NCBI GenBank assembly: GCA_037447655.1
Contig: JBBHKE010001953.1
Coordinates: 62,001 to 126,000 of the forward strand
Direction of reading: 5' to 3'
DNA length: 64,000 nt
Source of the DNA: Zygnema cylindricum
Lineage: Eukaryota; Streptophyta; Zygnematophyceae; Zygnematales; Zygnemataceae
How positions within the stretch are numbered: position 1 is the first letter of the stretch; every line of letters starts with the position of its first letter. A program made the translations under genes and the position numbers. The notes beneath the pieces are model-generated. The model was not told the DNA's origin. It was given only the letters and a program-made list of their open reading frames with translations, and ran no database searches. This document shows positions 16,885-62,205 of the stretch, piece after piece.

Positions 16885-19554
16885 GTGCACCACTTTGACC
16901 TCCGTGACAGTAAAGGCAGGTTCACACCGGTTGTTAAGGAAGAATTGTTACCTTCTACCGAGCCAACTGCACCAGAAAAACCTCCTCTAGTTGCCCATAT
17001 CGCGCGACCTTTGGGAGGATTATGGAGGACCATGGAAAGAGAGAAGTTTCGGGCATGGGGATTGCAGATTTGACTAAGGTGGTTAGCACGACTTAGGAGT
17101 TGGTGGTAATAGTCAAGGCACAGGGTCAGGCCCCGAGGGGGGGTGGACTAGTTACGGTGGATAAGGAGGCTTTAAAAAAGGAAAGGCGGGCTTTTTGGGA
17201 ACAAGAGTTGAACCTTTTACAAGAAGCAAGACATAGGTATCGTGGACATCCTAGTGGGCAGATGTTCACTTCTCCTAGGACAAGACCATATCCCGGAGCA
17301 CCAGTTCAGGAACCCACATCTATCTCGGAAACGCCACTACGGATACCTCTTTCGGAGATTTACCAAGATACCCCTCTTCAGCAAGAACGGGGTGGAACCA
17401 CAGGACCCAATGGGAAGGGTTTGGGTGCAGATTTACTTCTTCACATTGCCGTTTCTCCTCGAGGAGTGTTAACTATTGTTTTGGTAGAAGACGCCTTCGT
17501 AGTAAAAGCCTTGGTGGAATAACAACCGGACGAAAGAGTTCACATTTCCTTGAGGGCATCCACTCCTCCCGCTTCTCTTGCCACACAATCTCCACAATCC
17601 CCTGCTCTTACCTTTTTTCTGTCCCCATCCTTTTCTCTAGCTGCAGCAGTCCACGGGTCACCGAATCCACTTGTCTTACCTTACAAATATATCGCTTACT
17701 CACCTCCTCACAGGCGATCCCCATCCTCTTGTACTGGAACTCCTCCTCCCATGGGTTCATAGAGGCGGCCCAGGAAACAGACACTCTTCAGGAAACAAAC
17801 ACCTTCTCCTCCAAGCTTCCAGTCGTCACAGTCTCCGCCGCCATCTGTTCGTAGGGGACCTCGACCTTGTCTTCACATCCCCTCGGTAGAGACCGTTGTC
17901 AAGGAAGAATAAGCCTCTCTTGAATATAGAGGAGCAGATGACCAACCATCTTCTTCAAGAGCAAGACCTTTTTCAGTGGGGGGGGATGCCACTGGTGCTA
18001 CTACTGTCTGTCCTATAAGAGGACGGGCCCTGCAAGATCTCAAGGTAACAGATCCTCGGACAATATCACTAGCTCAGTTTGTCAGACCCACCTGACACGC
18101 CTCCTCACGGTCATCTGCCTTACCGAGGAGGAAAGAATAGGGGATATCTGGATCTTCATAGGGGACAACTCGGGAATTGCTTATTCTGATTTTGAACTTT
18201 TGTGGAAATCCTTCATGCAGTCTAAATAAACAAATACAGGGGACGGGCCATCCCCACGGATTTTAAGACCAATCTTTTCCTTATGATGGTAAAATATATA
18301 GCCGGAGGAGCTTAAGCAGACTATAAGGAGCGTCAACCCTATTTGAAGGCTCCCAACATCAAAATCTCCCATCCAGTTCTTGACGCTGAAGCCTTAGATG
18401 CAGCCGCCAACCCGGCTTTTGCCGCAGCCATTGCTGTTACCGCCACTTTCACTATGGACATGAAATAGCAAGCCCAAGGGAGGGCTTATGTCAACCATCT
18501 GCAGGCTATACAAGCCGCCAAGGCAACCAACCAGATGGTTGCCAATCGAACTCCCTGCATCACTCTTTTGGACGCCTGGAGACACCTTTATACAAAAAAG
18601 AATGAAACTACAATGAAGGAGTTCACGGACTTTCGATGTTTGAAAGATGAAACTCTTCAAACGCTGTTCAACCGCCTCTCGAGCCTCTATGAAAAGACTA
18701 AGCTGTCTACCATTGACACACCAGCCATGGCCACGAAATATTATGTCGCTGTTCGGAATACATTCGGACCAACAGGACTGGCTGCTCTCGACAATTGGAG
18801 TGCCAATCAGGCAATCTACGACAAGAATCCCACGTCGGAAGAAGTTTCATTGGTTGGTATGAAGTTATATGATCATTTTGTAAACAGCGAGGCCCAAGAA
18901 AAGGTTGTTACCGCCAAGGCACGAGCCAACGTCGCAGGTTTCACAAGGGAATCCTCTCTTAATCAAGAAAAACAAACACAACTCCAAGCTTTGTAGAAGC
19001 TTAAGGGGAAACACGAAGGTGAGACCAGACCCAAACTTACAATAGGTGCGGATGAAAACGTTTACCTGTACAACTGCCTTAACAACAACCAAACCGGTCA
19101 CGGGTGGAAATGATTCCCCAGGAAGCTCAACCAAAAACTCGCTATCAGGCAAAAAGAGTTTGAGAAAGAACATGCAGAAAGAACCCGAAAGAAGCAAGTA
19201 CGCAGGCAAGGAGGCTTAGGAGGGGATCCCACGCCGGTCACCAAAGACACTTATAAACATACTCCTTGCTCTGAGAGAACGAAGATGTCTCTATCCCAAT
19301 TGAGACAAATCAGACTTGCTAAATTTGATGATGCTCATATCTCTAATGAGCTAAGGGGCAAGTATACAACTGGGGGGTCCAAATGTGAGGCTTGTGGGTT
19401 CATGGGCCAGAAAGAAGGGCAATGTTTTTGGAAGAATGGGGTCCCAAAAGAAATGCTGCAATTTGCTTTGTTCACAGGCGAAGGGGAAATAACCAATAAT
19501 CCTCTGCCAATGCAACTTTTGTATCCCGAGGACGTAAATCTCTCGATGAACTAG
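16885..19554 (+). pseudogene. Gypsy gag region (Gy1)
   Basis: Open stretches at 16885-17073, 17100-17522 and 18535-18996 form a decayed Gag. The N-terminal part is basic and Pro/Ser rich (about 17100-17900). The capsid-like part holds TLLDAWRHLYTKKNETTMKE, TLQTLFNRLSSLYEKTKL and EVSLVGMKLYDHFVNSEA. A zinc knuckle relic follows at about 19390, CEACGFMGQKEGQC, with CCHC spacing but Gln in place of His. Stops occur at several points, including after ALVE (17522) and QLQAL (18996). A matching gag C-terminus in Gy2 (36319-36767) supports the family assignment. Gag would build the particle and bind RNA. Confidence 0.7.
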
Positions 19555-20519
19555 AACCCAACAGATTGACGCCAGAACATATCATTGAGCAACAAAGCAC
19601 TCAATTGGCTACCTTGGCAGCAAAACTGGCTCCTCTCTGCTTCAGATTGAATGCCCACACACATCAACCTCAGACGCCAACTTAAAAACTGCAAAAACAA
19701 AAACAAGAATTGCTATAAAGGCTGGCGGAGCTAGAGCAGCAGACCACATTGAATGGAGATGATGATGACCTTATGGGTTGGGATATAGAGCCTCTAAAGG
19801 CTCATCACGCTGGGACATTTCTATCCGAAGCGTAGAACATTGGATTCAAGGATAGTGGCATACAACTGCGCTCTACAACGTCCTCTCAGAGAAAGGATAA
19901 ACAACCAATGGAACAAAAGGACCACAGCCGCAAAGCCACTGGTTCTTTATCTTTCACACCAAGAGCAGTCCTTCTGAACAGTAACATTAAGTTTGGCATA
20001 AAACTGACTCATCCGCCTCCTCCAGCTTCAAAGACACTTCCTCTCGGCTTTGAAGGGTACAAGAAACCATAGCCAGAAAAGGATCCTTCTACAATCAAAA
20101 CAGTTTAGGAATGGTTCGATCGATACTTAGCTGAAAGACCACCGACAGACCTGCCGATTACACCTCCAACAACAAACTCTGACATAGAAGGTGAGGAGGC
20201 AATAGGGGTGATAGAGGAGAAATTGGAAGAGGAGGAATCACCCATTTCATCACCCAAAGCTAACACTCCTTCCTCCAAAACAATAGTTATGTTGGTACGA
20301 CACTTGGTGCCCTATGCACTAACGCACGTCAAGAAGCTAGCTTCCTCCCACAATTTGTCCTAAGAAACCCTCATTCAAGCACTGGGGGAAGAGATTCACA
20401 CCAAGAGGGAAAGGGTCGCTTTGGCATAACCACCCAAGACAGTCTTTATGTTGGGGAAACCAAAAACTTTTATGGCGGATAGTGATTATAAGGCCTTGTC
20501 GGTGGCCTTTATTCTTAAC
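19555..20519 (+). pseudogene. Gag-Pol linker of Gy1, no domain recognised
   Basis: Low-complexity, acidic and proline-containing translation with many stops. Short blocks such as DDDLMGWDIEPLKAHHA are matched by Gy2 (36319-36648), so this is element coding sequence and not spacer. I cannot assign a function to it. Confidence 0.55.
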
Positions 20520-21035
20520 AGGACCAAAAAATTTAAACTTAATGGATACTGCGGGTATCAAGATGCAGTGGTGAATACCAAAGCCCTCCCTAACTTTATA
20601 ACCACCTGAGCATTGCAACAAACGCCAGCAATACTCCGGCCAAAAATCAACCTAACTGACATATGCGTGAGCACGGTCAGCAATGGTAGCCAAGCAATAT
20701 ATGGCATCATAAAAGCAATGGAAATCGAATTTGCAGATGACGCAGGACAACATGTACAAATTCAACTTCCCTTCTTTGTGGTGGAAGGTAAGCAATTTGA
20801 AATTTTGTTGGGTATGACAACGTGGACAATATTTAACATGGAATTAAGCGTTTCGAAGGAACAATTTATAGTTTTGGACCTGGAGAATCCTGTGGGCACC
20901 AAAGTGGTGGTCCCCTTAGATTTATGGAACCGGGGGAGAACAATTGTTCCAATGTCTAGATGCTATCCTATATACGCTACATCCACCCCTTCGAAGTTGT
21001 GCAAAGACTCCACCGATATCGCTGGTTCCATCTAG
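20520..21035 (+). pseudogene. Gypsy aspartic protease remnant (Gy1)
   Basis: The block KKFKLNGYCGYQDAVVNTKA leads into a retropepsin-like fold: EIEFADDAGQHVQIQLPFFV, then VVEGKQFEILLGMTTWT, which resembles the flap and ILLG region of plant gypsy proteases. A canonical D-S/T-G triad is not clearly visible; DAVV(N/D) may be its relic. The Gy2 copy (35212-35757) is collinear and more open. The frame differs from the methyltransferase-RT frame, so at least one frameshift lies between 21035 and 21214. Confidence 0.62.
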
Positions 21036-21213
21036 CAATTCCCTATTTCCAAGCGGTGGGAAAGGGAGTATCAAAACATATTGGTACAGATGACCACATT
21101 TCAGCGTGATGTGGATAGGAGCTTTGCCACTATATTACCTAGAAAAACCAAACGTTATCTAGTCAAAACTTCGAAAGGTTCGTAACAAAGGGAATGATTT
21201 CAATCGACAAGTG

Positions 21214-22362
21214 GTGTCACTGGAGATCTTACTTTTAGGACTCATAATTCTATCAGTATTTCCTTGCATTAGTTCTAACTTCGAAGCCGTTCTAATATCT
21301 AGATAGCAAGTAGAAGTGTACTCTGCAGACGAGATTGACCCGGACGCACGTGGAGTCAGTGTGTATCGATTACAACAGCTGCACCAACTTTACCCACAAC
21401 CACTCTCGGTGTCTGCCATGTCTAACTCTCACCGCGCTCTTCCCTAGAATGTGGGCAACATCAAGAAGTCACATTTGGAGAAGCTTGGAACGGTAGATCT
21501 GGTGGTCGCTCTATGGCCGTGCCAGGGGTGTTCCTTAGTAGAACAAGGCAAGGGACACCAGGATGTCCGTAGCAGAACATTTTTTCAGATGACGGGACTA
21601 ATAATAGAGTAACAAAGACACCACGACACGCCAGTAGGGCAGGTCTGGGAAAATGTTCACCCCACAGATGATAAAAAAAAACAGGTGGTCAACAGCTTGA
21701 ACGAAGTGACCAAGGTTCTAAGGACTCCTATAGTTCTAGATGCAGCTCAGATCGGATAAAGAGCCCACAGAGTTCGAGCTTATTAGACCAACTTGGTTCC
21801 TCCTCCCATCCTCCAACAAAAGTTGAAAACACAAGTTTGGGATCCCAAAATCATTGTTCAACAAATTCTCGGCCCACGGCGAATGGCCACCCCTGTGACC
21901 AAACCCGACCGAGCAACATTCTTATGTTGCAATCAACCTGGAAATCCACGGAGGGCTCTACCAATCCTAGTATCATTTCCTAACAGCCATGCTTACCGGG
22001 AAGGCCCACCAAGGATGTTATTTGACAGTAAAGCCGCTACGTGGAGAGCACCAAGTATTGAGGAACGGGAACAAGCAAAAGGATTTCGACAGGCAACCTC
22101 AACAGCCCCAATGGTTTTAGCTTCACAAAGGTGCAATTTAATCGGGCAAAGTATAGATTTGAATGCAATTTCATGGGTGGTGCAACATTCTCTGGCATTC
22201 TACAACTTCAAGTCCCAAAACTCACAAGCAACATACCTTCAAGCTCCACAGTTGTTGGCCATGCAAGCTACTCTACAACTTCAGGGGGGGAGAAAGGCAA
22301 GAAGGGAAAAATTCACCAAATTATACCAAGAGAGTCCTAAGTGGGGGGGAGCGGAGGCTTAG
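21214..22362 (+). pseudogene. C5 cytosine DNA methyltransferase domain in gypsy pol (Gy1)
   Basis: A DNA cytosine-5 methyltransferase-like domain of about 340 residues in a single frame, broken by stops but with no frameshift that I can see. Motifs appear in the family order: a damaged motif I (VSLEILLLGL), acidic motif II (ADEIDPDARG), catalytic motif IV VDLVVALWPCQGCS with the Cys codon at 21520-21522, motif VI WENVHP (21646-21663), motif VIII RAHRVRAY (21760-21783), a target-recognition-like region (RRALPILVSFPNSHAYREG), and motif X LIGQSIDLNAISW (22138-22176). The family transfers methyl from S-adenosylmethionine to cytosine C5. It sits between protease and RT in the same frame as RT, so it is an element-borne domain and not a neighbouring host gene. 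Gy2 and Gy3 carry parts of the same domain at the same place. Confidence 0.82.
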
Positions 22363-22589
22363 AACAGGAAGTTGTCAGTAACAACATTTTTGCAGCCGAG
22401 CAAGGGACAAATCCACAAGTATAGCTTAAATTCAACATCTCCCTCTAGGGTCGACCACCAGAAGCATGGGCTGTAGTGGAATCCGGGAAGATACAGTAGG
22501 TTTTAGGGGAACAGCTAGACCCACAACAGAAGGCCAAGCTCTCGAAGGTGTAGAGGAGAATGAACAGATGTTCTCTGGTCTCACACTTA
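22363..22589 (+). pseudogene. Linker between methyltransferase and RT (Gy1)
   Basis: Several stops. Words match the better preserved Gy2 linker (28426-27974), such as the LGEHLDPQKKARLFKVLEEN segment. No separate domain is recognised. Confidence 0.55.
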
Positions 22590-24640
22590 TGTAGGAATCT
22601 ATAAGGGGACCCCTTTTCGCATTGACTTGACTGACGAGACAGCGACTGTTTGGCAAAAATAGTACCCTCTCAGCTTGAAGGAGAAGGAGTTCATCACTGC
22701 AAAGGTGTAGACTTTGGTGGACGCGGGGTCAGTGCAGGAAAGTATAGGGCTACATGGGTTTGCCTCTCCAACATTGCTCACGGCAAAGAAAGTATCCGGG
22801 AAAACGATAGATTTTCATATGTGTGGGGACTATCGGATGCTCAACGCGGCAACTGTCTCTCACCGTTATCACATGCCCACCCCAGAAGACATCTTAGACT
22901 CTTTGGCTGGGGCCACCATTTACTCCATGTTGGATATGAAGAATGGGTTCCACTAGATTGCAATGGAGCTAAAGCACTGCGAGAGAACAGCTTTTTGGGC
23001 AGGATCCAGGTTGTATGATGAAACTTTGTGTGCTCCATTGCCCAAAGAAATCGCAGATTTAAAAGAAGCTAATCAAGGTATTGCCGAATCCAAGTTGATA
23101 TAACTCAAATGACTGACCCTTTGACAATCAAAAACTCATAATAGCTTTACCCATGTGAAATATGACTTTATGTAAGCTCTGTTCCACCACAGAATGCAAA
23201 GTTAGAATATGAGTTTTGGACACATTTACCCACTTTGAATTTCCTTTAGAAATGCGGCCACCCTGATAGGCAAAAACTTTGACCGACTACACCCTTGTGT
23301 AGCTTGGACTCCCTTGAGTCTGCAGCAAAAAAAATCATTGAAAATGGTCAAGTAAATTGAAAAAAATGAATGGTCAAAGATGACCTTTTGTACTGGAGCT
23401 CTCTCGGAGAGAGGCTACTACCTACTAAATTTTCTAAGTCTTATTCCCTCTCTAAAACTCTATCTATTAACGTACAACACCAATCAAATTACGATGTCGT
23501 ACATAAAAGTAGAGGTACCGATGTACTTTCTGTACGGCCATCGTACAACATGGCCAAAATGTCGCCACGAAACAAATCGGGATTTGTTCCCGTAATCTCC
23601 GCGGTTGCCGCAATCCAATGTTGTCACGCCACATGTCACTTGAGGTGGAAATGACTCTAAAACGCCAAAAGTACTTATTCCGCAATCGTAGCGCCTATTG
23701 CGGCCGTTACACCAAAACCGACTTCAATTCTAATTGTTGAAAATGGGTGCGCGGTATTTGTTTCGCGATCAAAACAAATGCACGGTATCCTTTTCGTAAT
23801 GTACATAAGACCATACTATATTCAAACTGTTTCTATGTACTAGGAATCAATTCATCTATTTAAATGAATTGATCTACTTGATAACATTTATATGTTTATC
23901 AAACCTAACAGTACTTAGCAGTCGTCCTAGACTAATTGGATAAAGCAACTAGTTAACGGCTATCTTGACAAACAGCATGTTTCAGGTTCAAATCTTAGGT
24001 CCGTCAACTATCTTTTTGGTAAATCTACCCAGTCTATTCCATGTCTTCTATAGAGGACCTAGGCAGCCATGGCTCTATATCCCCTGTCCAGCCTTCAATG
24101 ACTACAACAAGTGTGGGGGCTGGGAGAGGGGAGTTAGAGGCAGACTGCCTCTGCTCTTTTCTTATTCTAATACAGACGTACAAAAATACTCAAATATCAA
24201 CATATGAGTGGCTATTCATGCCATTTGGCCTCAAAAATGCACCTGCCAAATTCCAACAGGCTATCGACGAGGCCCTCCCGGTTTTGATTGCGCACAGTGT
24301 TACATCGACGATGTGATCATTTTCTCTAAGACATTCAAACACTTGGAGCATATACAGATCGTTCTCGGGGCTCACCAAGTGGCGCGCTTGAAGTGCCATC
24401 TGGGGAAGGGTATCTTTGGGGTGCAGAAAATCATTTATCTGGGTCATGAGGTCACTACTGGGTCATGAGGTCACTCGTGAGACACTAGGTCCTCGCGTGG
24501 TTAACGTGGCATCCCTTGACGCCCTTCCACCCCCACAAGAACATTTTGGCCTTTCGCACTTTCCTACATCTAGCCAACTATTACTGGAGGTTTATTCCCA
24601 AATTTAATAGCCACGCCCAGCCCTTGAATCAGTTATTGCA
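22590..24640 (+). pseudogene. Gypsy RT, split by a solo LTR (Gy1)
   Basis: The N-terminal half (22590-23018) shows GIYKGTPFRIDLTDE, LKEKEFITAKV, LHGFASPTLLTAKK, FHMCGDYRMLNAATV and MPTPEDILDSLAGATIYSML, then DMKNGFH followed by a stop. After the inserted LTR the frame resumes (24203) with YEWLFMPFGLKNAPAKFQQA, the catalytic block CYIDDVIIFSKTF, and IYLGHEVT. An 18-bp direct duplication (GGGTCATGAGGTCACT-type) follows near 24438-24475. The YxDD aspartates are retained. Gypsy RT copies the element RNA into DNA in the particle. Confidence 0.85.
23019..24202 (-). repeat. Solo Copia LTR with 5-bp target duplication
   Basis: A complete 1184-bp LTR of the main Copia family, minus orientation, with no internal sequence. 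It is flanked on both sides by TATGA (23014-23018 and 24203-24207). Removing the LTR and one TATGA rejoins the gypsy RT reading (GSRLYEWLFMPFG). On minus it starts TGTTGATATTTGAG and ends ATGGAGCACACAAAGTTTCA, which fixes the exact LTR ends for the family and shows that the gag ATG lies inside the LTR. The tRNA-like module is at about 23923-24005 on plus. It formed by recombination between the two LTRs of a former full element. Confidence 0.93.
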
Positions 24641-25110
24641 AAAGGTCTAGCATTGGCAGTGGGCAAAAGAACAACAGCGGGCTTTCCAGTTCCTGAAAGA
24701 TTCCCTCAAGCAACATCTTGTGCTCCGCATGCCCGATCACCAGCGACCTTTCCTCTTTTATACTTATTGAAACAGATTTGGATTAGGAGCAGTGTTGGCT
24801 CAATTGGACAATGCAGGGGCGCAGTACCTAGTGGCATACGCAAGCTGGAGAAATAAAAGAGCTGAGGGGAATTAGAGCAGTTATCACGGGGAATTACTCG
24901 CCGCAGTATGGGCAATCCTGCATTTCAGGCCTTTCTATGGAGTACACTTCACCCTTATTACAGATCACCAGCCCCTCAAATAGATAATGTAGCCCATTAA
25001 ATTAACTGGCAAGCTGGCCAGATGGGTTCTCATCTTGCATGAATAGAATTTCAGCATCATCCACCGAGCAGGGGAGATTCATGGGAATGCAAACAGACTA
25101 AGTAGAAATC
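24610..25110 (+). pseudogene. Gypsy RNase H (Gy1)
   Basis: The translation shows HWQWAKEQQRAFQFLKDSL, GLGAVLAQLDNAGAQYLVAY, the block YHGELLAAVWAILHFRPFYG and TLITDHQPLK. This is the RNase H of gypsy pol that degrades the RNA strand of the hybrid. The first catalytic Asp (usually in DAS) is not visible; Glu of the GELLA block and Asp of ITDHQ are. Frame changes occur near 24760 and stops near 24880 and 24985. Confidence 0.78.
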
Positions 25111-25204
25111 TAGACCCTTCCATCACAAACTCTAGGGGGGCTAGGCAAGATGAAGACCCAGAGCTTAGTTTGGGACTTATCCGGGCTTCCTCAGCCTTCA
25201 TTTG

Positions 25205-26530
25205 ACTGCCTCGTGCTAAAGTAGAACTGTCAACTTTTGCTGCAGATGTCGTGGGGCAGGCTCTCATTCGAGCCGGCTGCAGGGATATTTGGAATGATAC
25301 CGATTCTCTTCAATCCATCTAGAAAGGCACCCCTCTTCCCCACCTGGCCGGAATTCACTTGTCCCGTGTTCAGACCGGAATGGCGACGTATGAATGGGAT
25401 AGAGGCATTCTTTTCTGTAAATGGGCTGATGGAGCAAGGATTGTGGTTCTTCTTCAGGCAAATCGGGAAACCCTCATTGCTCGTCTTCATCAGCAATGCA
25501 GGCACTTCGAACTGAAACGTACCACCTCACTGGTCACAGGGTCGTACTGGTGGCATGGGTTGCGGGCCTAGGTCAACCGCGTGGTAAAGACGTGCCCTTC
25601 CTATGACCGAGTGAAAGCTGACTTTGACAGAAAGGGTGGAACGGAACTTCACTCACTCCTAATCCGGGGGATGTTTTACAGATGGTCACTAGATCTATTG
25701 GGACCACTTCCAACCAGCCGGAGTGGGAATCGTTTTGTTCTACTAATGATTGAACACTTCTCCAAATGGATAGAATTGGTGGTTTCGCCCCGTAAGGAGT
25801 CCAAAGCAATCGCGGACGCATTGTTGTAGAAAGTACTGTCCCCTAAAAAAAAAAGGGAGAGAGAGAGAGAGAGAGAATAAAAAAGAAAGAAAATTTCGGA
25901 TTAAGGGTGCGAGTTTGCTGAAGAATTTTCTAACCTTCTGGTGAAGTGCCTGATTGACCACCGGTTGACTAGCCAAGACCACCCCCAAGCCGATGGCTAA
26001 GCCGAGAGGTGCGTACAGACAGTGAAGCAGTCACTACAGAAATATGCACTGGAAGAGGATTAGGGGGAATGGGACAAAAGGGTGCCTTAGATTGCCATGG
26101 GATAGAGGTTCAGCAAGCAGGCATCCCTCCACTCCTATAGCACTTACTTTATTCTCTTCGGAAGACATCCCATCCTACCTGGAGCTGCATCAGCTCAGGC
26201 GGTTGTGCTTCCAGAGATGGACAAGCGGGGGACTGTAGAGAAACTGATTGCCAACAATGCTAAGGTATTTCACCAAGAAATACCTCTGGCTATGGGTAAT
26301 TAACAGGCTGCTCAGCACGAGGATAAGCTTTAGTATTCCCAACGCTAAAGCGACAATTATTTTCATCGGCAATGATGATTCGTGCCTGGGGATTTTATGT
26401 ATCGCATGCAATACAATAATGATACTTTGGACATCTCGGCCGAACGGGTGATTCTGAAAGTAGTGGTCTCCAACAAGAGGGTTACCCCTCGACATCGGCA
26501 GCAAAAGTTGATTTTTCTCCTTCAACACGA
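25205..26530 (+). pseudogene. Gypsy integrase and C-terminus (Gy1)
   Basis: Zinc-binding domain remnants (CRHFELKRTT near 25500) precede the rve core at 25581-25829, which holds CPSYDRVKADFDRKG, MFYRWSLDLLGPLPT with the first catalytic Asp, and FSKWIELVVSPRKESKAIAD. The segment that should hold the second Asp (TDNG) is replaced by a homopurine run with (GA)n at about 25844-25900. Downstream, LIDHRLTSQDHPQADG, a stop and AERC retain the region of the catalytic Glu. The C-terminal part (DTLDISAERVILKVV) ends at about 26525. Nothing like a clear chromodomain is visible. Confidence 0.78.
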
Positions 26531-27122
26531 GGAAGCCAAATGAAGGCAGAGGATGCCCGGATAAGTCCTAGGCTAAGCTCTGGGTCTTCATGTGTCTAGC
26601 CTAGATAGAGTGTGTGGTGGAAGGGTCTGGATTCTTGCTCAGTTTGTTGGCATTCCCATGAATCTCCCTTGCTCGGTGGATAATGTTAAAATCGTATTCT
26701 TGCAAGATGAGAACCCATCTTGCCAGCTTGCCAGTTTACTTACTGTTCTCTATTATCCATGTGAGGGGCTGGTGATCTGTAATATAGGTGAAGTGTACTC
26801 CATAGAGGTAAGGCGTGAAATGCTGCATTGCCCATACTGCAGCGAGTAATTCCATGTGATAATTGTTGTTATTCCCTTCGGCTCTGTTATTGCTCCGGCT
26901 AGCATATGCCACTACCTACTCCGCCCTTGCATCGTCCTATTGAGCGAACACTGCTCCTAATCCGAATTTGCTCCAATGTGTATAAAGGAGGAAAGGTCGT
27001 TGGTGATTAGGAATCCAAAGCACAAGATGTTGCTTGATGGAAAATTTCAAGAACTAGAAAGCAATAGGATGTTTTTTTATCCACTGCCACTTATGGTCCT
27101 TTCGCAATAATTGATTTAATGG
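26531..27122 (-). pseudogene. Gypsy RNase H remnant (Gy2)
   Basis: Reverse-strand homologue of Gy1 24620-25200. Recognisable nucleotide blocks include the GAACCCATCTTGCCAGCTTGCC and CATTCCCATGAATCTCCC segments. Translation is heavily interrupted. No integrase follows, because the copy ends at the Gy1 junction. Confidence 0.68.
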
Positions 27123-27973
27123 CTAGTCGTGGCTACTAGATTCGGGAAAAATCCTCGAATAATAGTTCGCCATCCCCAAGAAAGTGCGAAGAGCCGAAAT
27201 GTCCTGCGGGGGTGGAAGGGCGTTAAGGGCTGCCACCTTAACCATGTGGGGACCCATTGTTCTCGAAGTCATCTCATGACCCTGATAAAAGATTTTATGC
27301 ACCCAAAAAATAACTTTCTCCGGGTGACACTTGAACCCTGCTGCTTGGAGAGCCTGCAGAATAATCTGTATATGCTCCAAGTGTTCCTCGAATGTCTGGA
27401 AGAAAATAATCACATCGTCGATGTTACACCTTATGCAATCAATCCCCCAGAGGGCCTCGTCCATGGCCCGTTGGAATTTGGCAGGTGTATTTTTGAGGCT
27501 AAATGGCATGTACATCCATTCATACACCTAGATCTGGACCAAAATGCGGTCCTCTCTCGGTGCTTCGGCTCGATAGCAATCTGGTGGAACCCATTCTTCA
27601 TATCCAACGTAGAGTGAATGTTCGCCCAAGCAAGAGAGTCAAAGATCTCTTCCGGGGTGGGCATGGGATATCGGTCAAAGACACTTGCCGCGTTAAATAT
27701 CCGATATTCCCCACACATCCGAAAATCTACAGTTTTCCCGGATGAGTCTTTCTTTAGCGGGAGCACTTTTGGAGAGGCAAACCCATGTAGCCTTGAACTT
27801 TCCTGCACCAGCCTCGCGTTCACCAAAGTGTGCACCTTTGCGGTGATGAACTCCTTCTCCTTAAAGATGAGAGGGTACTGTTTCTGCAAAACGGTTGTCG
27901 TCTCGTCGGTCTGGTCTATGCGGAAAGGGGTCTTTTTATAGATCCCTACATCTCTGTCACACAAAAAGATCAC
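27123..27973 (-). pseudogene. Gypsy RT (Gy2)
   Basis: Two overlapping frames cover RT. The first (27973-27431) has GIYKKTPFRIDQTDE, SSGKTVDFRMCGEYRIFNAA, MPTPEEIFDSLAWANIHST and LDMKNGFHQIAIEPKHRERT. A frameshift near 27510-27525 leads to the second (27527-27123) with YEWMYMPFSLKNTPAKFQRA, the catalytic CNIDDVIIFFQTF (YIDD reads NIDD), and FLGMANYYSRIFP. It aligns collinearly with Gy1 RT and lacks the solo LTR, which confirms the undisturbed sequence at that site. Confidence 0.85.
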
Positions 27974-29261
27974 CTACCTGTTCTCCTCTAACACCTTGAA
28001 GAGTCGGGCCTTCTTCTGTGGGTCTAGGTGTTCCCCTAAAGTTTTTCCGAGTTCCACTGCCGCTAATGAATCCGGTGGCCGACACCCAAGGGAGATGTCT
28101 AATTCCAATTCTACATGTGGATATGTCCTTGGCTCCACTACTAAAACGCTATTGCTGACAACTTCCCCTAAGGTGCCCTGTTCCGAGCCCCCGCTACCCC
28201 CCACTGAGGAAACTCCTCGGATCAATGTTCTTTCTGAATGTAATTGGGTGATTTTTTCCCTTCTTGCCCCTCTCCCCCCCGCAAGCTGTAGAGAAGCTTG
28301 CATGGCAAATAACTGTGGAGCTTGAAGGTATGTTGTTTCTGACTTTGGAGACCGGAGGCTGGAGAATGCTAGAGAATGTTGCAGCACCCATGAAATTCCA
28401 TTTAAATCCATACTTTGCCCTATCAAATAACATCTTTTTGAGGCTGAGATTCTTGGTGTTTTTGTTGTTGCTGGTCAAAATCCCATTGCTTATTCGTGTT
28501 CTTCAATACTTGGTGTTGTCCACGTAGCGGTCTTACTGTCAAAGATCATTCCTGGTGCGCCTTTGTTGTAAGCATGGCTGTTGGGGAAAGATATCAGGGT
28601 CGATAGGGCCCTCTGTCGATTTCCTGGTTTATTGCAACCGAGAAAGATGCTCGGTCGGCTATGGTCACATGGGTGGCCATTCGCCTCGGTCCGCGGATCT
28701 GTTGAACTATGATATCGGGGTCCGGAACTTGTGTTTTTAATAGCTGTTGGAGGATGGGCATAAGCACCAAGTTGGTCCAATAAGCCCGAACTCAGTGGGC
28801 TATTGATCCAACCTAGGCTGCATCAAACACTATTGGAGTCCCCAGAACCTTGGTCACTTGGTTCTTGCTGCTGACTACATGTTTCCTTTCATCATATGTG
28901 GGGTGAACATTTTTCAAGACGTACCTCACTAGTGTGTCGTGGCGTTCCTCTAACCCTGTTATCAGTCGATTCATTTGAAAAAATGTTCTGCTACGGACAT
29001 CCTGGTGTCCTCTGCCCTCTCCCGCTAACAAATACCCTTAGCAAGGCCATCGAGCGATCACCAAGTCTACCTTTCCAAGCTTCTCCAAATGTGAATGCGT
29101 GATGTTGTCTACATTTTGGGGAAGCGTACAGTGAGAGTTAGACATGGTAGACGTTGAGAGTTAATGTGGGTAAAGTTGATGCTGCTATTGTAGTCTATGC
29201 TTGCTGACTGCACAGGCGTCCAGGTTAATCTTGAATGCCGAGTACGTTCCTACTTGGTATC
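27974..29261 (-). pseudogene. Methyltransferase domain and linker (Gy2)
   Basis: Second copy of the methyltransferase segment. It begins within motif II-like sequence (YSAFKINLDACAVSKHRLQ) because the C6 LTR cuts off motif I. Motif IV reads VDLVIARWPC followed by a stop in place of Gln. Motif VI reads LKNVHP (Glu to Lys). The downstream blocks GNRQRALSTLISFPNSHAYN and motif X MIGQSMDLNGISWVLQ are well preserved. At least one frame change separates the motif VI and recognition-region frames. The linker up to RT is open (28426-27974) and includes LGKTLGEHLDPQKKARLF. Confidence 0.78.
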
Positions 29262-33982: not shown

Positions 33983-35177
33983 TAGGTGACCGAGTGGATC
34001 ATGCTTATTCTGGAATGACAGGGGAGCCTCTTACCATTCAAGAAGCTTTCTCCGTTTCGGAAAAAGATCTGTGGATTGCTGCGGCGAATGACGAGATAAA
34101 GTCAATTATGGAGGCTCAAACTTGGGAGCTTGTGGAACTTCCACCGGATCGAAAAGCGATTGGTTGTAAGTGGGTATTGAAGTTAAAACTGAATCCCGAT
34201 AATACCATTGAGAGATATAAGGCCAGGCTTGTTGCTAAGGGGGGTAGCCAGAAAGAGGGTATTGATTATGAAGAGACGTTCTCACCTGTAGTTCTTTTTC
34301 CTACTGTTAGGATTCTCCTTTCTTTAGCAGCAATAGAGGATATGGAATTGCATCAAATGGATGTGAACACAACTTTCTTGCATGGGGGATTTGGAGGAAG
34401 TTATATATATGAAGCAACCAGAGGGATATGTAGAAAAAAAGAAAGAAAATCTGGTCTGTAAATTGTTGAAGTCCCTTTATGGTCTGAAGCAGGCTCCACG
34501 AAAGTGGAACCTAAAACTGGATGAATTTTTGACAAATCTTGGCTTTACTAGAATCAGTTCATATCATTCAGTTTATGTAATGGAAGGGGAAGATGGAGTG
34601 ATATATATTGTTGTTTATGTTGATGATTTGTTGTTGCTAAGCAAATCCATTAATGAAATTAACAAAATAAAAACACCTCTAGATTCCCGGTTCGAAATGA
34701 AAGATTTAGGGGAGGCTAAGTATATTTTGGGAATTCAGGTAGAAAGGGATAGAAAACAAAGACTAATTTATTTGACACAGAAAGAAGCCATTGGAAACAT
34801 GCTTGAAAGGTTCGGCATGTCAGAGGCAAAGGGAAGTGCTACTCCCATGGAGTTCAGACAGAAAATAGAAGGGAAAGAATCACATGGTGGGGTTGTGATT
34901 GATGACTCTTTGGGGTCTAGGGAGGAAGATTTTATGTCCTCCATTTCTTACAGGCAGATCGTTGGAAACCTCATCTACTTCATGAACTGTACCCGTCCGG
35001 ATATTGCAGCAGCTGTTGGAGCTTTAAGCCGAAGTTTGCAATATCCAAATAAGTCAGACTGGGAGGCAGCAAAGAGAGTTCTTCGATATCTTGCAGGAAC
35101 TCGAAACCTCCGACTCTCTCTCGGTGGAGAGGAAGTAAAAATTCAGACATAGAGCGATGCGAGCTATGGAGATATGT
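33840..35177 (+). pseudogene. Copia RT and start of RNase H (K1)
   Basis: After the frameshift, RT runs from [20 protein letters not shown] through [10 protein letters not shown]. An extra G in a GGGGG run at about 34383-34387 shifts the frame, which then continues [35 protein letters not shown] with both catalytic Asp, and RFEMKDLGEAKYILGIQVER. A TAG (35150-35152) replaces the Trp of TWSDASYG, and the element ends a few codons later. Lesions: two frameshifts, one nonsense change, one truncation. Both frameshifts are near simple or homopolymer sequence. Confidence 0.88.
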
Positions 35178-35211
35178 TCTGATACTCCCTTTCCCACCGC
35201 TTGGAAATGGG

Positions 35212-35757
35212 GAATTGCTAGATGGAATTCGCGATATTGGCAGAATCTTTGAACAACTCTGAAGGGGTGGATGCAAAGTACACCGGATAGCATCCACTCA
35301 CACGAATAGTCGTTTTCCCCCGGTTCCATAAATCTAAGGGGACCACCACTTTGGTTCCCTCGAGATCTTCCGGGTCTGAAATTGTAACTTGTTCCTTCCA
35401 TATACTCAACTCCATGTTCAACCTTGTCCATGTGGCCATACCCAACAGAATTTCAAATTGCTTACCTTCCACCACAAGGAAGGAGAGCTGAATTTGAACG
35501 TGTTGGCATGCGTCATCCATGAATTCGATTTCGATTGCTTTAATGATGCTATATATTGGTTGGCTCCAACTATTGACTCTACTCATGCATATTTCACTAG
35601 GGCTGATTTTTAGCCTAATTTCCTCGGGCATTTTTTGTAATGCTGAGGTGGTTATGAGATTAGGAAGGGCTTCGTTATCCACCACTGCATCTTGATACCC
35701 GCCATATCCATTAAGTTTAAAATTACGTGTCTTGTTTAGAATAAGAGCCATCGACAA
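35212..35757 (-). pseudogene. Gypsy aspartic protease region (Gy2)
   Basis: A 179-codon open stretch, collinear with the Gy1 protease but with fewer breaks. Blocks include FKLNGYGGYQDAVVDNEALP, ISPSEICMSRVNSWSQPIYS, HVQIQLSFLVVEGKQFEILL and GTKVVVPLDLWNRGK. Here QDAVVDNEA could be a relic of the active-site loop. I see no canonical DTG or DSG, so protease identity rests on position and the ILLG-type segment. Confidence 0.65.
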
Positions 35758-36318
35758 GGTCTTTTAATCTCTTTATGCCATAAAAGTTTTTGGTTCTTCC
35801 GACATCAAAACTGTCTTGGGTGATTTTGCCAACGCGACCCTTTCCCTCATGGTGTGAATCTCTTCCCCTAATGCATGAATGGGGATCTCTTCGGGAAAAT
35901 TGTGGGAGGAAGCTAGCGTTTTGACGAGGGTCAAGGCGTCGAGCATCAGGTGTCGTACTAACATAACTGCTGGTTTGGAAAAAGGTGGGTGAGTTTTCGG
36001 CGATGAAATGAGTGAGTCCCCGTCTTCCGATTTCTCATGCTCCCCCCCCCTTGCTTCTTCATCCTCTACGTCTCAGTTCCCTGTTGGAGGTGTAATTGGT
36101 GGATCTGCGATTGGTCTTTCAACCAAGTATCTGTCGAACCATTCCTAATCTGATTTAGTGGTTGAACCATCCTTTTCATGCTGTGGTTTCTTCTAACCCT
36201 CGAAACCAAGAGGAAGTGTCTTAGGAACCGGAGGAGGCGAATGGGTTCGTTTTAGGATCAGCCCAATGTCAGTATTTAGCAAGACAGCTCGCTCTGTGAA
36301 GGATAAAGGACCAGTGGT

Positions 36319-36767
36319 TTAGCGGGTGTGGTTTCTTGGTTTTATCAACTGTTTGTCCTTTCTCTGTGCAGCAGTGGTAGAGCGTGGTTGCCTGCGATTA
36401 TCCCCTACTCCGACATTCGAGGATTCAGACAGAAATGTCCGAGCATGATGAGCCTTTGGAGGATCTATATCCCAACCCATGGGTTCGTCATCATCTGCAC
36501 CTGCCAAGGTTTGATGTACCAGCTCCGCTAGCTTTTGTAAAAGTTCTTGTTTCTGTTTATGCAGTTTCTGAGCGTGCGTTAGGGGTGGAGGTGTGCGGGC
36601 CTTTGATCCTAAGCAGAGAGCGGCGAAATATGATGCCATAGGAGCCAATTAAGTGCTTTACTGTGAATGATGTGTTGCGGTGTCATGTTATTTGGTCCCG
36701 TTTCATCTGGAGATCGACGTCCCCAATGATACAAAAGTTGCAGTGGCAAAGGATTAACGACGTTTTC
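36319..36767 (-). pseudogene. Gypsy gag C-terminal region (Gy2)
   Basis: An open stretch of 109 codons with KLHKQKQELLQKLAELVHQT, the acidic DDDEPMGWDIDPPKAHHART and a basic tail. It matches Gy1 19560-19930. Sequence between 36649 and 36767 still matches Gy1 (the CTGCAACTTTTGTATC segment on minus). The region 35758-36318 between this and the protease is coding-like linker with stops. Confidence 0.62.
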
Positions 36768-37755
36768 TACAACTTTGAGACCTCTATTGGTACTCAGAGC
36801 AGGCAGTTTGCCAAAAGCCTCTAGGATGACCTCAACTCCTTGGTCTTTGCACTAGTATAGTTGACACTCAGACACTATACAGACAACCAAATTGCACCCC
36901 TTGGAAGAGCTACATCCCTTAAGTCTGCCACAAAAAGAATCCTTGAATTTGCTCCTCTGAGCAGTTAATTATCAATGGTCAAAGATGACCTTTTATATAG
37001 GAGCTCTGTGAGAGAGAGGCGGCTACGTCTAATTTTCTAAGTCCTAAACCCCTCTCTAAACTCTCTTCTACTGATGTACGGAGCCAATTAATAGTGTATA
37101 GAGTAAAGAAAGGTACTTGGTCCGAAGTACTTTCTGTACGACCATTCTACAACATGGCCAAAAAGACGACGCCTGCCATATCTGGGTTCGCCATAGTATG
37201 TCCCGGAAATTTCGTCATCAATGTCATGCTGCCACGTGTCACCCGTTGTGGCTACGACCGTAAACCGCCAAATCGGCCATTCCGCGATGCCGGCTTCTTT
37301 CTCCGCCGTTAGATTGATATCGATCTTAATTTATAACCGTTTAATATATAATGAGTACTTTTCGTTGTAACTTTATTTAACTATGTTTGTGTGATTGTGG
37401 TCCGTTTGTCAATAAACCAAACTTCTCTATTTTGTCATGTTTAAGTAATTATCGTACCCTATATACTTCAGCACTGGTCTTAGACTAGAGGGTAAGACTA
37501 ATGGCTATTTTGACGGACGGTTGGTACCAAGATCAAATCCTGTGTCCGTGAATCCTTTTGGTGAGATTACTAAGGATCTTCCTTTTGACTCTATAAAGAG
37601 CATGGGCAGCCATGGCTCTAGCTTCTTCTCCAGCCTTCAGTGACTATGACAAGTATGGAGGCTTAGAGAGAAAAGCTACAAGCAAGCTGCCTCTGCTTTT
37701 TCCTGCTTCTAATTAAATCAAATAAATAATCTAGAAAATACATTTTATTTCAACA
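36768..37755 (-). repeat. 3' LTR of C7 (TGTTGAAAT subtype)
   Basis: About 988 bp; closest to the C8 3' LTR (44708-45708). They share CTCAGAGCAGGCAG-like, TGACACTCAGACAC-like and GTCACCCGTTGTGG blocks. The end is mutated (AAAGTTGTA where C8 has AAAGTTGCA). The tRNA-like module is at about 37471-37549 on plus. Confidence 0.8.
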
Positions 37756-37768
37756 CTCCTCTTATTTT

Positions 37769-39543: not shown

Positions 39544-39579
39544 TGGTATTTCTAGGTTGAAGTCTTTCTTTGTCTGTGT

Positions 39580-40600
39580 TTAATTTGCAAGGATATCATA
39601 TGAACCTGCAAAAGTGTCATCTTCTTGAATATCTGGATAGTTACGAAGATGAACGTCATCAGAATTGTCTGCCTCAAATCTGATTCTGACTAACTTTGAG
39701 GATTTAAAGGGATCTACCGACTTCCCTTCATCCATAGCTACCAGATGCTTTACTAAAATTATATCTTCTCTTTTTAGATCATACACTCTTTAACGTTTTA
39801 CATCCTCATCATATCCTAGCAAGTATTCGGGTTTCCCTTTAGGATCTAGTTTCCAGTTTGATTTATCTGTATCTAAACCGAAGACTTTACTACCGAAAAC
39901 CTTTAAGTGAGATAGATGTGGTTTTCGGCCGGTCCATTTATCATATGGAGTTTGGCCATTCACAGCCGAAGTAAGTACTCTCTTTCTCAAATAATTAGCA
40001 CAATTCATAGCTTCGTCCCAAAATCTTTTTCCTAACTCTTTATCTGACAACATACTCCGAGCACTATCATTTAGTGTCCTATTCAATCTCTTGGCAACAC
40101 CATTCTGTTCCGGGTTTTCTAGAACTATCTTTTGATGTTGAACACCATCCTCCCTTAAGAACTCCTCAAACTGATTGGAGTTTTATTCCCCTCCATTGTC
40201 ACTTCTTACTCTCTTTATTGGGGTCTCGTGAAGTTTCTCGGCCCATGCCTTATAATGTTTAAAATACTCTGGAGTTTCTGATTTGTTTTTCAGAAAGTAT
40301 ACCCGAGAGTACCGAAACCAATCATCGGTAATGGTTAGCATATATCTTTTTCCTCCGGGTGATGGCACTCTCGCCGGTCCCCAAATGTACGTGTGTACCA
40401 TATCAAGAACTTTTTCTCCTATATAAGTTGCTTCTTTTGGGAATGGTAATCTGTGTGCTTTACTTGGGCACACCCACTGCAATCACTTACATTATCATTT
40501 TCCCCAAAGCGTATCCCTTCAACGACTCCCAACTTTTTCATTTCTTTTAACTTTTCTAGATTCACATGTCCAAGTCTCTTATGCCACAATATAATATCAT
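39580..40600 (-). pseudogene. Copia integrase (C7)
   Basis: The pieces 40482-40183, 40086-39790 and 39786-39580 cover the integrase core and C-terminus. VHTYIWGP has Tyr where the first catalytic Asp should be, RSDNGGE keeps the second, and PEQNGVAKRL has Lys in place of the catalytic Glu. The zinc-binding segment (CSGCAQVK) is at about 40470 and is followed by a 1-base frame change. Two of three catalytic residues are lost, so it is inactive. Confidence 0.84.
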
Positions 40601-43284: not shown

Positions 43285-43540
43285 GTATAGGATACTTTTT
43301 CCTATTCCACTCGCTCCCTCATTATTACCTATGCATATTGTCGCGGAAGAGAGGTACAGGAAAGGGCACAATCACACATCCGGAACCGCATCAGTATATG
43401 GGGTGGATTGCAAGTTTTCTATGCACACCTTTCTCGGACATCTCCCCTAAACCTCCTGGTTTTCAAGACTTAATACATTGTACTTCTGGCGATTGGCCCT
43501 TCTCCAATATTTCCTAGGTAGGCTCGACACATCTGATAGT
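43285..43540. other. Short unassigned segment beside C7
   Basis: About 255 bp between the C7 LTR and the recognisable gypsy RT of Gy3. It does not match the sequence expected next in gypsy RT. No ORF, repeat or RNA signal is seen. It may be filler from the rearrangement. Confidence 0.4.
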
Positions 43541-44707
43541 CCCCACACATCCGAAAATCTACAGTTTTCCGAAGGAGTCTTTCTTTGGCGAGATTACTGC
43601 TTAAGAGGCAAACCCATGTAGCCCTATACTCTCCTGCACGAGCCCTGCGTCCACCAAAGTCTGTAGCTTTGCAATGATGAACTCCTTTCTCCTTGAAGCT
43701 GAAAGGGTATTGTTGCAGTATTGTTGGTCAGGATTATCCGAAAAGGGGTCCCTTTATAGATCCCTACATCTATGTCAGACCAAGAGAACACCTGTTAGTT
43801 CTCCTCTAACAACTAGGAGAGCGAGACCTTCTATTTTGGGTCTAGTTGTTCCCTTATATTCCAATCCATCTTCTCGGGTTCCACTGCCGCCAATGCTTGC
43901 GGTGGACGACCCTAGAGGGAGATGTTGAATTCTAGATCTACCTGTGGATGTGTCCGTTGCTCACCAGCTAAAACGCTGCTGCTGACAACTTTCCGTAAGC
44001 TGATCTTTTCTAAGCCTCCGCTTTCCCCCACTTAGGAAACTCTTAGGTTCATTCTGTTATCTGAATGAAATTGGGTGAATTTTTCCCTTCTTGCCTCTCT
44101 CCCCCCCTCAAGGTGTAGAGTAGTTTACATGGCCAACAACTGTGGAGCTTGAAGGTATTTTGCTTGTGACTTTGGAGACTGGAGGTTGGAGAATGCCAAA
44201 GAATGTTGCAGCGCCCATGAAATTGCGTTCAAATCCATACTTTGCCCGATTAAACTACACCTTTTGGAGGTTCAGACCCGTGGTGCTGTTGTGGTTGCTA
44301 ATCAAAATCCCATTTCTCGTTCCCGTTCCTCAATACTTGGTGTTGTCCACGTAGCGGCCGTACTGTCGAAGATCATTCCTAGTGCGCCTTTGTGGTAACC
44401 ATGGCTGCTATGGAAAGATACCAGGGTTGGTAAGGCCCGATGTTGATTTTCCGGGTTGATTACAACGAAAGAAGGGTGCTCGGTCGGCTATGATCATAGT
44501 GGTAGCCATTCGCCTTGGTCTGAGAATCTGTTAAACTGTGATGTTGGGATGGAGAACCTGTGTTTTTAATAGCTGTTGGAGGATGGGAAGAGGAACCAAG
44601 TTGGTCTAATAAGCCCGAAACTCTGTGGGCTCTTGATCCGATCATAGCTACATCAAACACTGTGGCAGTCCCCAAAACCTTGGTCACTTAGTTCTAGCTG
44701 TTGACCA
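43541..44707 (-). pseudogene. Gypsy fragment Gy3: methyltransferase C-terminus and RT start
   Basis: Third copy of the methyltransferase gypsy, minus strand. It reads from VTKVLGTATVFDVA and motif VIII GSRAHRV (about 44630) through the recognition-like region to motif X LIGQSMDLNAIS (44225-44255). The linker and first part of RT follow, up to FRMCGDY near 43545. Motifs I, IV and VI are missing because the C8 LTR cuts in at 44707, which is preceded by GACCA. It shows that the domain is a fixed part of this gypsy family. Confidence 0.75.
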
Positions 44708-45708
44708 TGCAACTTTCAGACCTCCATTAGTACTCAGAGTAGGCAGCTTACTAGAAGCCTGTAGGATATCCTCAATCCCTTAGTCTTTGTATGAGTATTA
44801 CTGACACCTTGACAAAATACAAACTAACCAGAGTGCAGCCCTTGGAAAAGCAGACTCCCTAGAGTCTACTACAAAAATAAACCTTGAATTTGCTCCCCTG
44901 AGAAGTTGATTATCAATGGTCAAAGATGACCTTTTATACAGGAGCTCTCTGGGAGAAAATGGCGGCTACCTTTAACTTTCCTATGTCCTAAACCCCTCTC
45001 TAATCCCTCTACTACTTAAGTACCGAGCCAATCAATTCACTGTACAGTACAGAAAGGTTCTTGGCTCACAGTACTTTCTATACGGCCATTGTACGACATG
45101 GCCAAGAAGCTGACGCCTACCATATCTGGGTTCCCCATGGTATGTCCCAGAGATGCCGCTATCCAATGTCATGTTGCCACGTGTCACCCGTTGTGGTTGT
45201 GACCGCAAACTGCCAAATCGCCTATTCCGTGATCCCGGCTTCTTCCTTCGCCGTCCGATTGATACTGGCCTTAATTTACAGCCGTTTAAAATACAAGCAA
45301 TACTTTTCGATGTGATTCTATCTAACTGTCAATGTGATTGTGGTCCGTTCATCAGTTAAATGAACTTCTCTATTTCCACGTCTTCAAGTAGTTATCGTAC
45401 CCTATGTACTTCAACACAGATGTTAGGCTACATGGTAACGACACTAGACTACTTGAACGGACGGTACGTACCAGGATCAAATCCTGGGTCCGTCAACCAT
45501 TTTGGTAAGTTACCCAAAGGGCTGCCTTTTGACTCTAGGGGAAGCATAAGCAGCCATGGCTTTAGCTTCCTCTCCAGCCTTTAGTGACTACGGCAAGTAT
45601 AAGGGCTAGAGAGAGAAATTAGAAGCAAGTTGCCTCTGATTTTTCCTGCTTCTATTTAGATCATTTAAGTAACCTAGAAAATACCTAAGAAAACCTTTAA
45701 TTTCAACA
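44708..45708 (-). repeat. 3' LTR of C8 (TGTTGAAAT subtype)
   Basis: 1001 bp. On minus it starts TGTTGAAATTAAAGG and ends ATGGAGGTCTGAAAGTTGCA. The tRNA-like module is at about 45421-45496 on plus and includes CCAGGATCAAATCCTGG. The gypsy pentamer GACCA lies just outside (44703-44707). Confidence 0.83.
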
Positions 45709-45769
45709 CTCCCTTTATTTTCTGGTCACTTTTAAATTTAAGTCCACACTTCTCTTTGCAAAAAATAAT

Positions 45770-46760: not shown

Positions 46761-46869
46761 TCTTAACTGATCCGGATGTATCCCAGACCGATAAGGAACT
46801 CATCAAGTTTCTTGTTCCACTGTCTGGGCGCCAGTTTCAAACTTTAGAGAGATTTGATCAACCGGCATA

Positions 46870-47510: not shown

Positions 47511-47519
47511 GTCTTTCTC

Positions 47520-61039: not shown

Positions 61040-61047
61040 AAGGGGAG

Positions 61048-62116: not shown

Positions 62117-62205
62117 TCATAGTGAAGCACTCAAAGAAATAAAATACATCCATTTCACATCATAGTGAAGCACTCAAAGATACAAAATGCATCCACGCAT
62201 TAGAG
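62117..62205 (+). repeat. Tandem duplication of about 43 bp
   Basis: TCATAGTGAAGCACTCAAAGA followed by A/T-rich sequence and CATCCA occurs twice, at 62117-62159 and 62160-62202, immediately beside the C9 3' LTR. Confidence 0.8.

What the first reader, a model, noticed from the sequence alone, without database searches (positions are those of the whole stretch)
21214..22362. Gypsy retrotransposon with a built-in C5 cytosine methyltransferase domain
Seen: between the protease and RT of Gy1, in the RT frame, motifs of DNA cytosine-5 methyltransferases occur in order: EIDPDA-type motif II, WPCQG (catalytic Cys), WENV, RAHRVRAY, and GQSIDLN as motif X. Two further copies (27974-29261 and 44220-44707, minus) carry the same domain at the same place, so it is a fixed part of the family. 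Known: retrotransposons that captured such enzymes have been reported in dinoflagellates and charophyte algae, and those enzymes can methylate CG. Inference: the element may have methylated its own cDNA to change host silencing. All copies here are broken by stops.
Basis: partly seen in the sequence, partly recalled or inferred. Interest (0 to 1): 0.9.

Follow-up and report, generated by a model that had tools for sequence, protein, structure and literature searches.

The report
Plant retrotransposons carrying DNA methyltransferase genes
Decayed jumping genes in this green-plant-lineage genome carry a built-in enzyme of the kind that chemically marks and silences DNA, and less damaged relatives in the same genome show that the enzyme is a maintained part of the element, often paired with a histone-reading domain.

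Summary
Window 21217-22164 (+) encodes a decayed DNMT3-type C5 cytosine methyltransferase between protease and reverse transcriptase of a Ty3/gypsy element (PF00145, E 1.3e-5). Copy 2 carries most of it, copy 3 only its C-terminal half. The kind is known: KnitGypsy-Dnmt3 of Klebsormidium nitens (PMC5890265). Self-methylation of cDNA is plausible but unproved, and no excess CpG depletion was seen.

Added here: (1) the host genome has at least 123 PF00145 matches; 104 of 106 examined resemble this family, some in long open frames; one element has identical 931-bp LTRs. (2) The DNMT shows purifying selection. (3) Relatives occur in Marchantia, Closterium, Klebsormidium and metagenomes, in two domain orders that DNMT and RT trees both separate. 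(4) Many integrases end in a PHD finger, divergent in the window's own subfamily. (5) In the window's subfamilies an in-frame stop parts Gag-PR from DNMT-Pol at 60 of 64 sites, UAG-CAA-UU at 54; codons after it are constrained, suggesting programmed readthrough.

Novelty: new variant of a known kind.

The parts
17367..19446 (+). copy 1, Gag region (three frame pieces)
   Evidence: tblastn with the L013 Gag frame, 41-74% identity
20610..21032 (+). copy 1, protease end of the Gag-PR frame
   Evidence: open frame 20610-21035; aligned to PR tails of other copies; no Pfam hit
21033..21035 (+). in-frame UAG, followed by CAAUUCCC, at the PR/DNMT junction
   Evidence: same place in other copies
21217..22164 (+). 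copy 1, DNMT3-type C5 methyltransferase domain, motifs I to X, 5 internal stops
   Evidence: PF00145 E 1.3e-5; PDB DNMT3A E 1.2e-5; coordinates
22576..23019 (+). copy 1, first part of reverse transcriptase
   Evidence: tblastn with L013 Pol, 83%; RVT_1
23020..24202 (+). inserted DNA that splits the RT (resembles the LTR-like repeats at 57970-59040 and 61046-62116)
24203..26483 (+). copy 1, rest of RT, RNase H, integrase up to Pol residue 1426; PHD tail missing
26485..29259 (-). copy 2, Pol residues 90-1025: DNMT (from motif II on), RT, RNase H; abuts copy 1 head-on at 26483/26485
   Evidence: RT/RNase H Pfam; DNMT piece only E 0.067 in Pfam
43523..44708 (-). copy 3, Pol residues 217-622: C-terminal half of DNMT, linker, start of RT
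   Evidence: no Pfam hit
35172..36756 (-). fourth fragment: Gag-PR with the same UAG junction at 35220-35218
   Evidence: self-BLAST; junction

Best explanation
The window holds remains of a Ty3/gypsy retrotransposon family whose polyprotein includes a DNMT3-type cytosine-5 DNA methyltransferase as a maintained domain. Shown by sequence: order Gag-PR, in-frame stop (mostly UAG), DNMT-RT-RNase H-integrase, with a PHD-like tail in less decayed copies; purifying selection on the DNMT; many copies, some very young. Inferred: a minority of ribosomes read through the stop, so the DNMT is made only as part of the scarce Pol product and travels with RT and integrase. Inferred further: it methylates the newly made cDNA or the fresh insert and its surroundings at cytosines, so that the copy enters the genome already in a silent state; in PHD-bearing members the finger may steer integration to chromatin whose H3K4 is unmethylated. 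The benefit would be lower damage to the host or protection of the copy; which one is open.
For: PF00145 and DNMT3A/B matches. AlphaFold model of the L013 domain (pLDDT 72, pTM 0.77): all 50 listed PDB rows are DNMT3A/3B entries, some in complex with DNMT3L. Catalytic Cys 51 of 52, Glu of ENV 52 of 52, both Arg of RxR 52 of 52. DNMT dN/dS median 0.228 in 16 pairs. LTRs identical over 931 bp in one element, 6 mismatches in 1475 columns in another. Stop at the PR/DNMT junction at 60 of 64 sites (18 of 18, 42 of 46); 30 codons after it have median dN/dS 0.248 over 631 pairs; at 7 of 18 sites no in-frame AUG lies between stop and motif I.
Against: No methylation or readthrough was measured. CpG is not specially depleted. 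DNMT dN/dS is higher than RT (median 0.117, 9 pairs), RNase H (0.053, 4) and integrase (0.058, 3), and only 6 of 16 DNMT pairs are under 0.2; only stop-free frames were used, pairs are not independent. Four of 64 junctions are sense codons. Subfamily C has no such stop. The PHD of the window's subfamily A is under the Pfam cut-off (17.5-21.5 bits, cut-off 24). The catalytic loop of the model has pLDDT under 50.
Confidence: 0.6

Rival explanations
1. The DNMT acts on host chromatin or the host genome in trans (or protects against competing elements), not on the element's own cDNA.
For: PHD fingers in many members point to chromatin contact; no CpG depletion of the element itself. PMC5890265 discusses possible effects on the host epigenome.
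Against: The enzyme lies in Pol next to RT and integrase in both architectures, which favours a role close to cDNA and integration. Nothing here measures trans effects.
Confidence: 0.25
2. The DNMT domain is a catalytically unimportant passenger or a structural or RNA-binding part of Pol.
For: Higher dN/dS than RT, RNase H and integrase; many decayed copies.
Against: Catalytic residues kept in 51-52 of 52 rows across deeply split lineages; dN/dS well under 1 in 16 of 16 pairs.
Confidence: 0.1
3. The two architectures (DNMT before RT; DNMT between RNase H and integrase) come from separate captures rather than one capture and a move.
For: Different place of the domain; DNMT tree and RT tree both separate them; PMC5890265 argues for repeated capture.
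Against: With two gypsy RTs lacking a nearby DNMT as outgroup, all 28 DNMT-bearing RTs form one group (100/100) and type II nests with type I; PHD occurs in both. But only two outgroup rows were at hand, and the rows were recruited by their DNMT.
Confidence: 0.3
4. The conserved UAG is an ordinary terminator and Pol is made by another route (internal initiation, spliced RNA).
For: No readthrough measured; no strong downstream structure (a 5-bp stem whose bases are also fixed by coding).
Against: Both sides in one frame; codons right after the stop constrained; no AUG before motif I at 7 of 18 sites; context UAG-CAA-UU close to the readthrough motif UAG-CAR-YYA of plant viruses (recalled).
Confidence: 0.15

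Closest known systems
KnitGypsy-Dnmt3 (Klebsormidium nitens; de Mendoza et al. 2018, PMC5890265)
   Same: Gypsy Pol with a non-rearranged DNMT3 domain; the K. nitens protein KFL_009030040 (P0045) is a hit (42% over 65% of the query) and falls among type I rows in the DNMT tree.
   Different: Here two direct LTRs in the two elements checked, where the paper's figure legend states a DIRS-like repeat arrangement; PHD tail and PR/DNMT stop are not mentioned in the passages read ('PHD' 0 occurrences in the main text); far more copies found here.
SymbioDIRS-Dnmt3 and SymbioLINE-Dnmt (dinoflagellates; PMC5890265)
   Same: Retrotransposon with a C5 methyltransferase; DIRS type is also Dnmt3-like.
   Different: Other retrotransposon classes (tyrosine recombinase DIRS; LINE); the paper treats them as independent captures.
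Chromoviruses (gypsy with integrase-end chromodomain)
   Same: Chromatin-reading domain at the integrase C-terminus.
   Different: PHD-like finger instead; no chromodomain found in own Pols scanned; one metagenome relative (P0043) has both by its precomputed Pfam list.
Ginger1 transposases with C-terminal PHD (PMC2836005, passages)
   Same: Gypsy-like integrase with a PHD further on.
   Different: Cut-and-paste DNA transposons with Ulp1 or OTU domains, no RT, no DNMT.

Membership tests
Ty3/gypsy LTR retrotransposon | Pol order RT - RNase H - integrase with gypsy-type domains | tested here: met
   RVT_1, RT_RNaseH, Integrase_H2C2, rve in order in L012, L013, L009; window copy 1
Ty3/gypsy LTR retrotransposon | two direct LTRs | tested here: met
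   931/931 and 1475 columns with 6 mismatches in two subfamily C elements; target-site duplications not recognised. LTRs of subfamily A not found inside its 10-kb loci
DNMT3 | PF00145 domain above cut-off | tested here: met
DNMT3 | closest to DNMT3 among solved C5 methyltransferases | tested here: met
   sequence: DNMT3A E 3e-14, HhaI 6.6e-5; fold: 50 of 50 listed rows
DNMT3 | linear motif order, not rearranged as in DRM | tested here: met
   motifs I-II-IV-VI-VIII-X in order; a host DRM exon with the rearranged order is seen in L086
DNMT3 | place inside the DNMT3 clade in a tree with host DNMT1/2/3/5 families | not tested
   no host DNMT panel was at hand for a tree
KnitGypsy-Dnmt3 | DNMT in the Pol frame of a gypsy element | tested here: met
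KnitGypsy-Dnmt3 | Ka/Ks under 0.2 on the DNMT | tested here: inconclusive
   6 of 16 pairs under 0.2, median 0.228, one pair 0.85
KnitGypsy-Dnmt3 | DIRS-like arrangement of repeats | tested here: not met
   plain direct LTRs in 2 elements, both of subfamily C; subfamily A not resolved
Active cytosine-5 DNA methyltransferase | enzyme activity on DNA | not testable with these tools
   catalytic residues kept
Programmed stop-codon readthrough | conserved in-frame stop with constrained coding on both sides | tested here: met
   60 of 64 sites; dN/dS medians 0.248 after (631 pairs) and 0.139 before (18 pairs)
Programmed stop-codon readthrough | measured readthrough product | not testable with these tools
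   none
H3K4me0-reading PHD finger | no cage tryptophan before the aromatic-His | tested here: met
   Gly in 23 of 23 pattern matches among 56 sequences scanned; nearest solved: PHF12, Lid, BAZ2B, WSTF, PHF21A; that this class reads unmodified H3K4 is recalled

The most novel reading that the evidence does not exclude
One old clade of gypsy elements, spread over streptophyte algae and liverworts, carries a complete write-and-read silencing kit: a DNMT3 writer and an integrase-borne PHD finger that reads unmethylated H3K4, with the writer dosed by UAG readthrough in some lineages. Each new copy would be placed in, and marked as, silent chromatin by the element itself, the two halves of what the ADD and catalytic domains do together in animal DNMT3.
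Probability: 0.35. Interest if true: 0.82.

Novelty: new variant of a known kind. Interest (0 to 1): 0.62.

Why it matters
DNA methylation is the host's main weapon against retrotransposons, yet these elements carry the enzyme themselves and keep it intact. A genome with many copies, some with identical LTRs, and a close set of DNMT-bearing subfamilies makes the question of what the enzyme does for the element testable. If the PHD and readthrough readings hold, the element controls both where it lands and how it is marked, and the capture would be a lasting trait of an element clade rather than a curiosity of one alga.

Tried and rejected
Chance motif match: rejected. Bacterial-type methylase: disfavoured, HhaI scores far below DNMT3A. 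Host DRM origin: disfavoured, motif order is linear. CpG depletion as a trace of self-methylation: looked for, not found. Codon-position signal between window copies: weak (DNMT mismatches 59, 51, 75 of 290 at positions 1, 2, 3). Naming the host: only 'streptophyte', from a CMT-like exon (L007) and a DRM-like frame (L086), both recognised by eye from recalled motifs; no rbcL in the assembly. A copia frame search for the host's kin gave nothing decisive. RNA structure behind the UAG: a 5-bp stem that coding alone could explain. Deeper tree agreement is incomplete: the Klebsormidium pair joins subfamilies A/B in the DNMT tree (98/88) but not in the RT tree, and the Closterium pair joins the Marchantia group in one and A/B in the other, with modest support. 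Type I is not a clade in the outgroup-rooted RT tree (AU p 0.35). Rows dropped: P0049 and P0050 as short and P0051 as weak in the DNMT tree. An early protein alignment used wrong frames for some pieces and was replaced.

Full report
Observation. Read with X at stops it matches PF00145 above the curated cut-off and, in the PDB, DNMT3A and DNMT3B before any bacterial enzyme. Searched by itself against the large protein collection it found nothing at E <= 0.01 among 2742 candidates. Copy 1 spans Gag to integrase (17367-26483), split by an insertion in RT (23020-24202). Copy 2 abuts it head-on. Copy 3 has only the second half of the DNMT. A fourth fragment holds Gag-PR.

Genome. The window lies in a 352.8-Mb assembly. 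PF00145 has 123 scored matches there, out of 782 candidates, so the number is a lower bound. I fetched sequence for 106 of them. By similarity of the DNMT, 104 belong to this family: 18 distinct loci of L009-L028 and 86 of the 88 (85 at 45% identity or more, plus L099 at 44%). The other two look like host genes, a CMT exon (L007) and a DRM (L086), which place the host among streptophytes. 17 were not seen. Three subfamilies stand out against the window's domain: A (about 56-74% identical), B (42-45%) and C (about 31-35%).

Anatomy. L012 and L013 (A) have open Pol frames of 1525 and 1520 residues: DNMT, RT, RNase H, integrase, and a divergent PHD-like tail under the Pfam cut-off. L009 (C) is one frame of 2395 residues with zinc knuckle (sub-threshold), DNMT, RT, RNase H, integrase and a PHD above cut-off. 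All 20 ten-kb loci show RT-IN homology of the family, L027 only remnants. The loci were picked for high score or long frames and are not a random sample. Two C elements have direct LTRs: 931 of 931 identical, and 6 mismatches in 1475 columns.

Enzyme. Over 52 rows the catalytic Cys is kept in 51, the Glu of ENV in 52, both Arg of the RxR motif in 52 (the window row is among them). The L013 domain matches DNMT3A at E 3e-14 over residues 69-284. Its model (pLDDT 72.1, pTM 0.77, catalytic loop weak) finds DNMT3A/3B entries in 50 of 50 listed PDB rows, at 18-23% identity and TM 0.49-0.57 by query length. dN/dS among stop-free copies has median 0.228 for DNMT (16 pairs, 0.106-0.850), against 0.117 for RT (9 pairs), 0.053 for RNase H (4) and 0.058 for integrase (3). 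So the DNMT is constrained, less tightly than the rest of Pol.

Relatives. With L013 residues 60-440 the protein collection gave 39 hits among 7989 scored candidates (a capped list). Named ones are Marchantia polymorpha (P0015, P0023, P0027), Klebsormidium nitens (P0045), Closterium (P0034, P0049) and a EukProt protein (P0025); most are unnamed metagenome or transcript contigs. Domain mapping shows type I (DNMT-RT-RH-IN, with or without PHD) and type II (RT-RH-DNMT-IN-PHD). The DNMT tree (52 rows) parts 24 type I from 21 type II rows at 100/97; seven rows that end behind the DNMT fall on the type I side. The RT-RNase H tree (28 rows) makes the same split at 99/98. With two gypsy RTs that have no DNMT beside them in the fetched stretch as outgroup, the 28 rows hold together (100/100) and type II is a clade (100/98), while type I is not, though its unity is not rejected (AU p 0.35). 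Deeper placement of the Klebsormidium and Closterium pairs differs between the trees. A single capture followed by a move of the domain is the simplest reading; two outgroup rows cannot settle it.

PHD finger. A C4HC3 pattern found 23 fingers in the second half of 56 sequences, and all 23 have Gly where methyl-lysine readers have Trp. The L009 finger is closest to PHF12, Lid, BAZ2B, WSTF and PHF21A fingers. That several of these bind unmodified H3K4 is recalled knowledge. The Closterium protein P0034 and P0033 show no PHD, the K. nitens protein is partial, and in the window the tail is missing.

Stop codon. At the PR/DNMT junction 18 sites examined first (two in the window, at 21033-21035 and 35220-35218) all have a stop, 17 UAG and 1 UAA. 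Of 46 further sites 42 have one (40 UAG, 2 UAA) and 4 have sense codons. Together 60 of 64; 54 of 64 read UAG-CAA-UU. Some loci are near-identical (for example L001/L002, L055/L056) and may not be independent. The frame is the same on both sides. In 52 of 62 genome copies the 30 codons after it are open, and their median dN/dS is 0.248 over 631 non-independent pairs, 99.5% under 1. At 7 of 18 sites no in-frame AUG precedes motif I. Subfamily C has no stop shared by its members in that stretch, with private stops in L004 and L015. I read this as programmed readthrough that sets the dose of DNMT-Pol against Gag-PR, not yet measured.

Mechanism. Shown: a conserved DNMT3-type domain in Pol. Inferred: it is made in small amounts with RT and integrase and methylates the element's own cDNA or fresh insert. 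Against a strong mutational trace of this, CpG observed/expected is 0.53-0.68 in five gypsy pieces of the window, 0.46-0.67 in six copia pieces, 0.59-0.63 in subfamily A frames and 0.83-0.92 in C frames.

Literature. PMC5890265 (text parts 1-3 of 7 and passages) describes KnitGypsy-Dnmt3, with Ka/Ks under 0.2, and CG activity for SymbioDIRS-Dnmt3 only. PMC12344493 (passages) mentions DNMT3 in retrotransposons of streptophytes and dinoflagellates without this detail. PMC6453930, PMC2836005 and PMC6338049 were seen as passages. Searches listed no paper whose title or abstract start describes PHD-tailed DNMT gypsies, the type II order or the UAG junction; only open-licence papers are held, so this is not proof of absence.

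Noticed in passing
P0051: A metagenome protein of 1121 aa with zinc knuckles, a DNMT-like stretch (E 6e-6 to the query; no PF00145 hit) and what looks by eye like a copia-type protease and pre-integrase: possibly a Ty1/copia element with its own methyltransferase.
   Followed up: partly
P0020, P0025, P0043 and others: Second architecture with the DNMT between RNase H and integrase; P0043 lists a chromodomain besides the PHD.
   Followed up: partly
window 57970-62116: Direct repeats of 1071 bp, 98.9% identical, around about 2 kb with a Gag-like zinc-knuckle frame: looks like a young, short, non-autonomous LTR element.
   Followed up: no
window 23020-24202: Insertion in the RT of copy 1, partly 77% identical to the repeats at 58620-59040 and 61696-62121: may be a solo LTR.
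   Followed up: no
window 36770-41100 and 44710-49047: Two copia-like elements 85% identical, each ending next to a gypsy fragment (36756 and 44707), suggesting nested insertion.
   Followed up: no
window 26483-26485: Copies 1 and 2 meet head-on, 3' parts facing, with no gap.
   Followed up: no
L007 and L086: Host CMT-like exon and host DRM-like frame in the same genome.
   Followed up: partly
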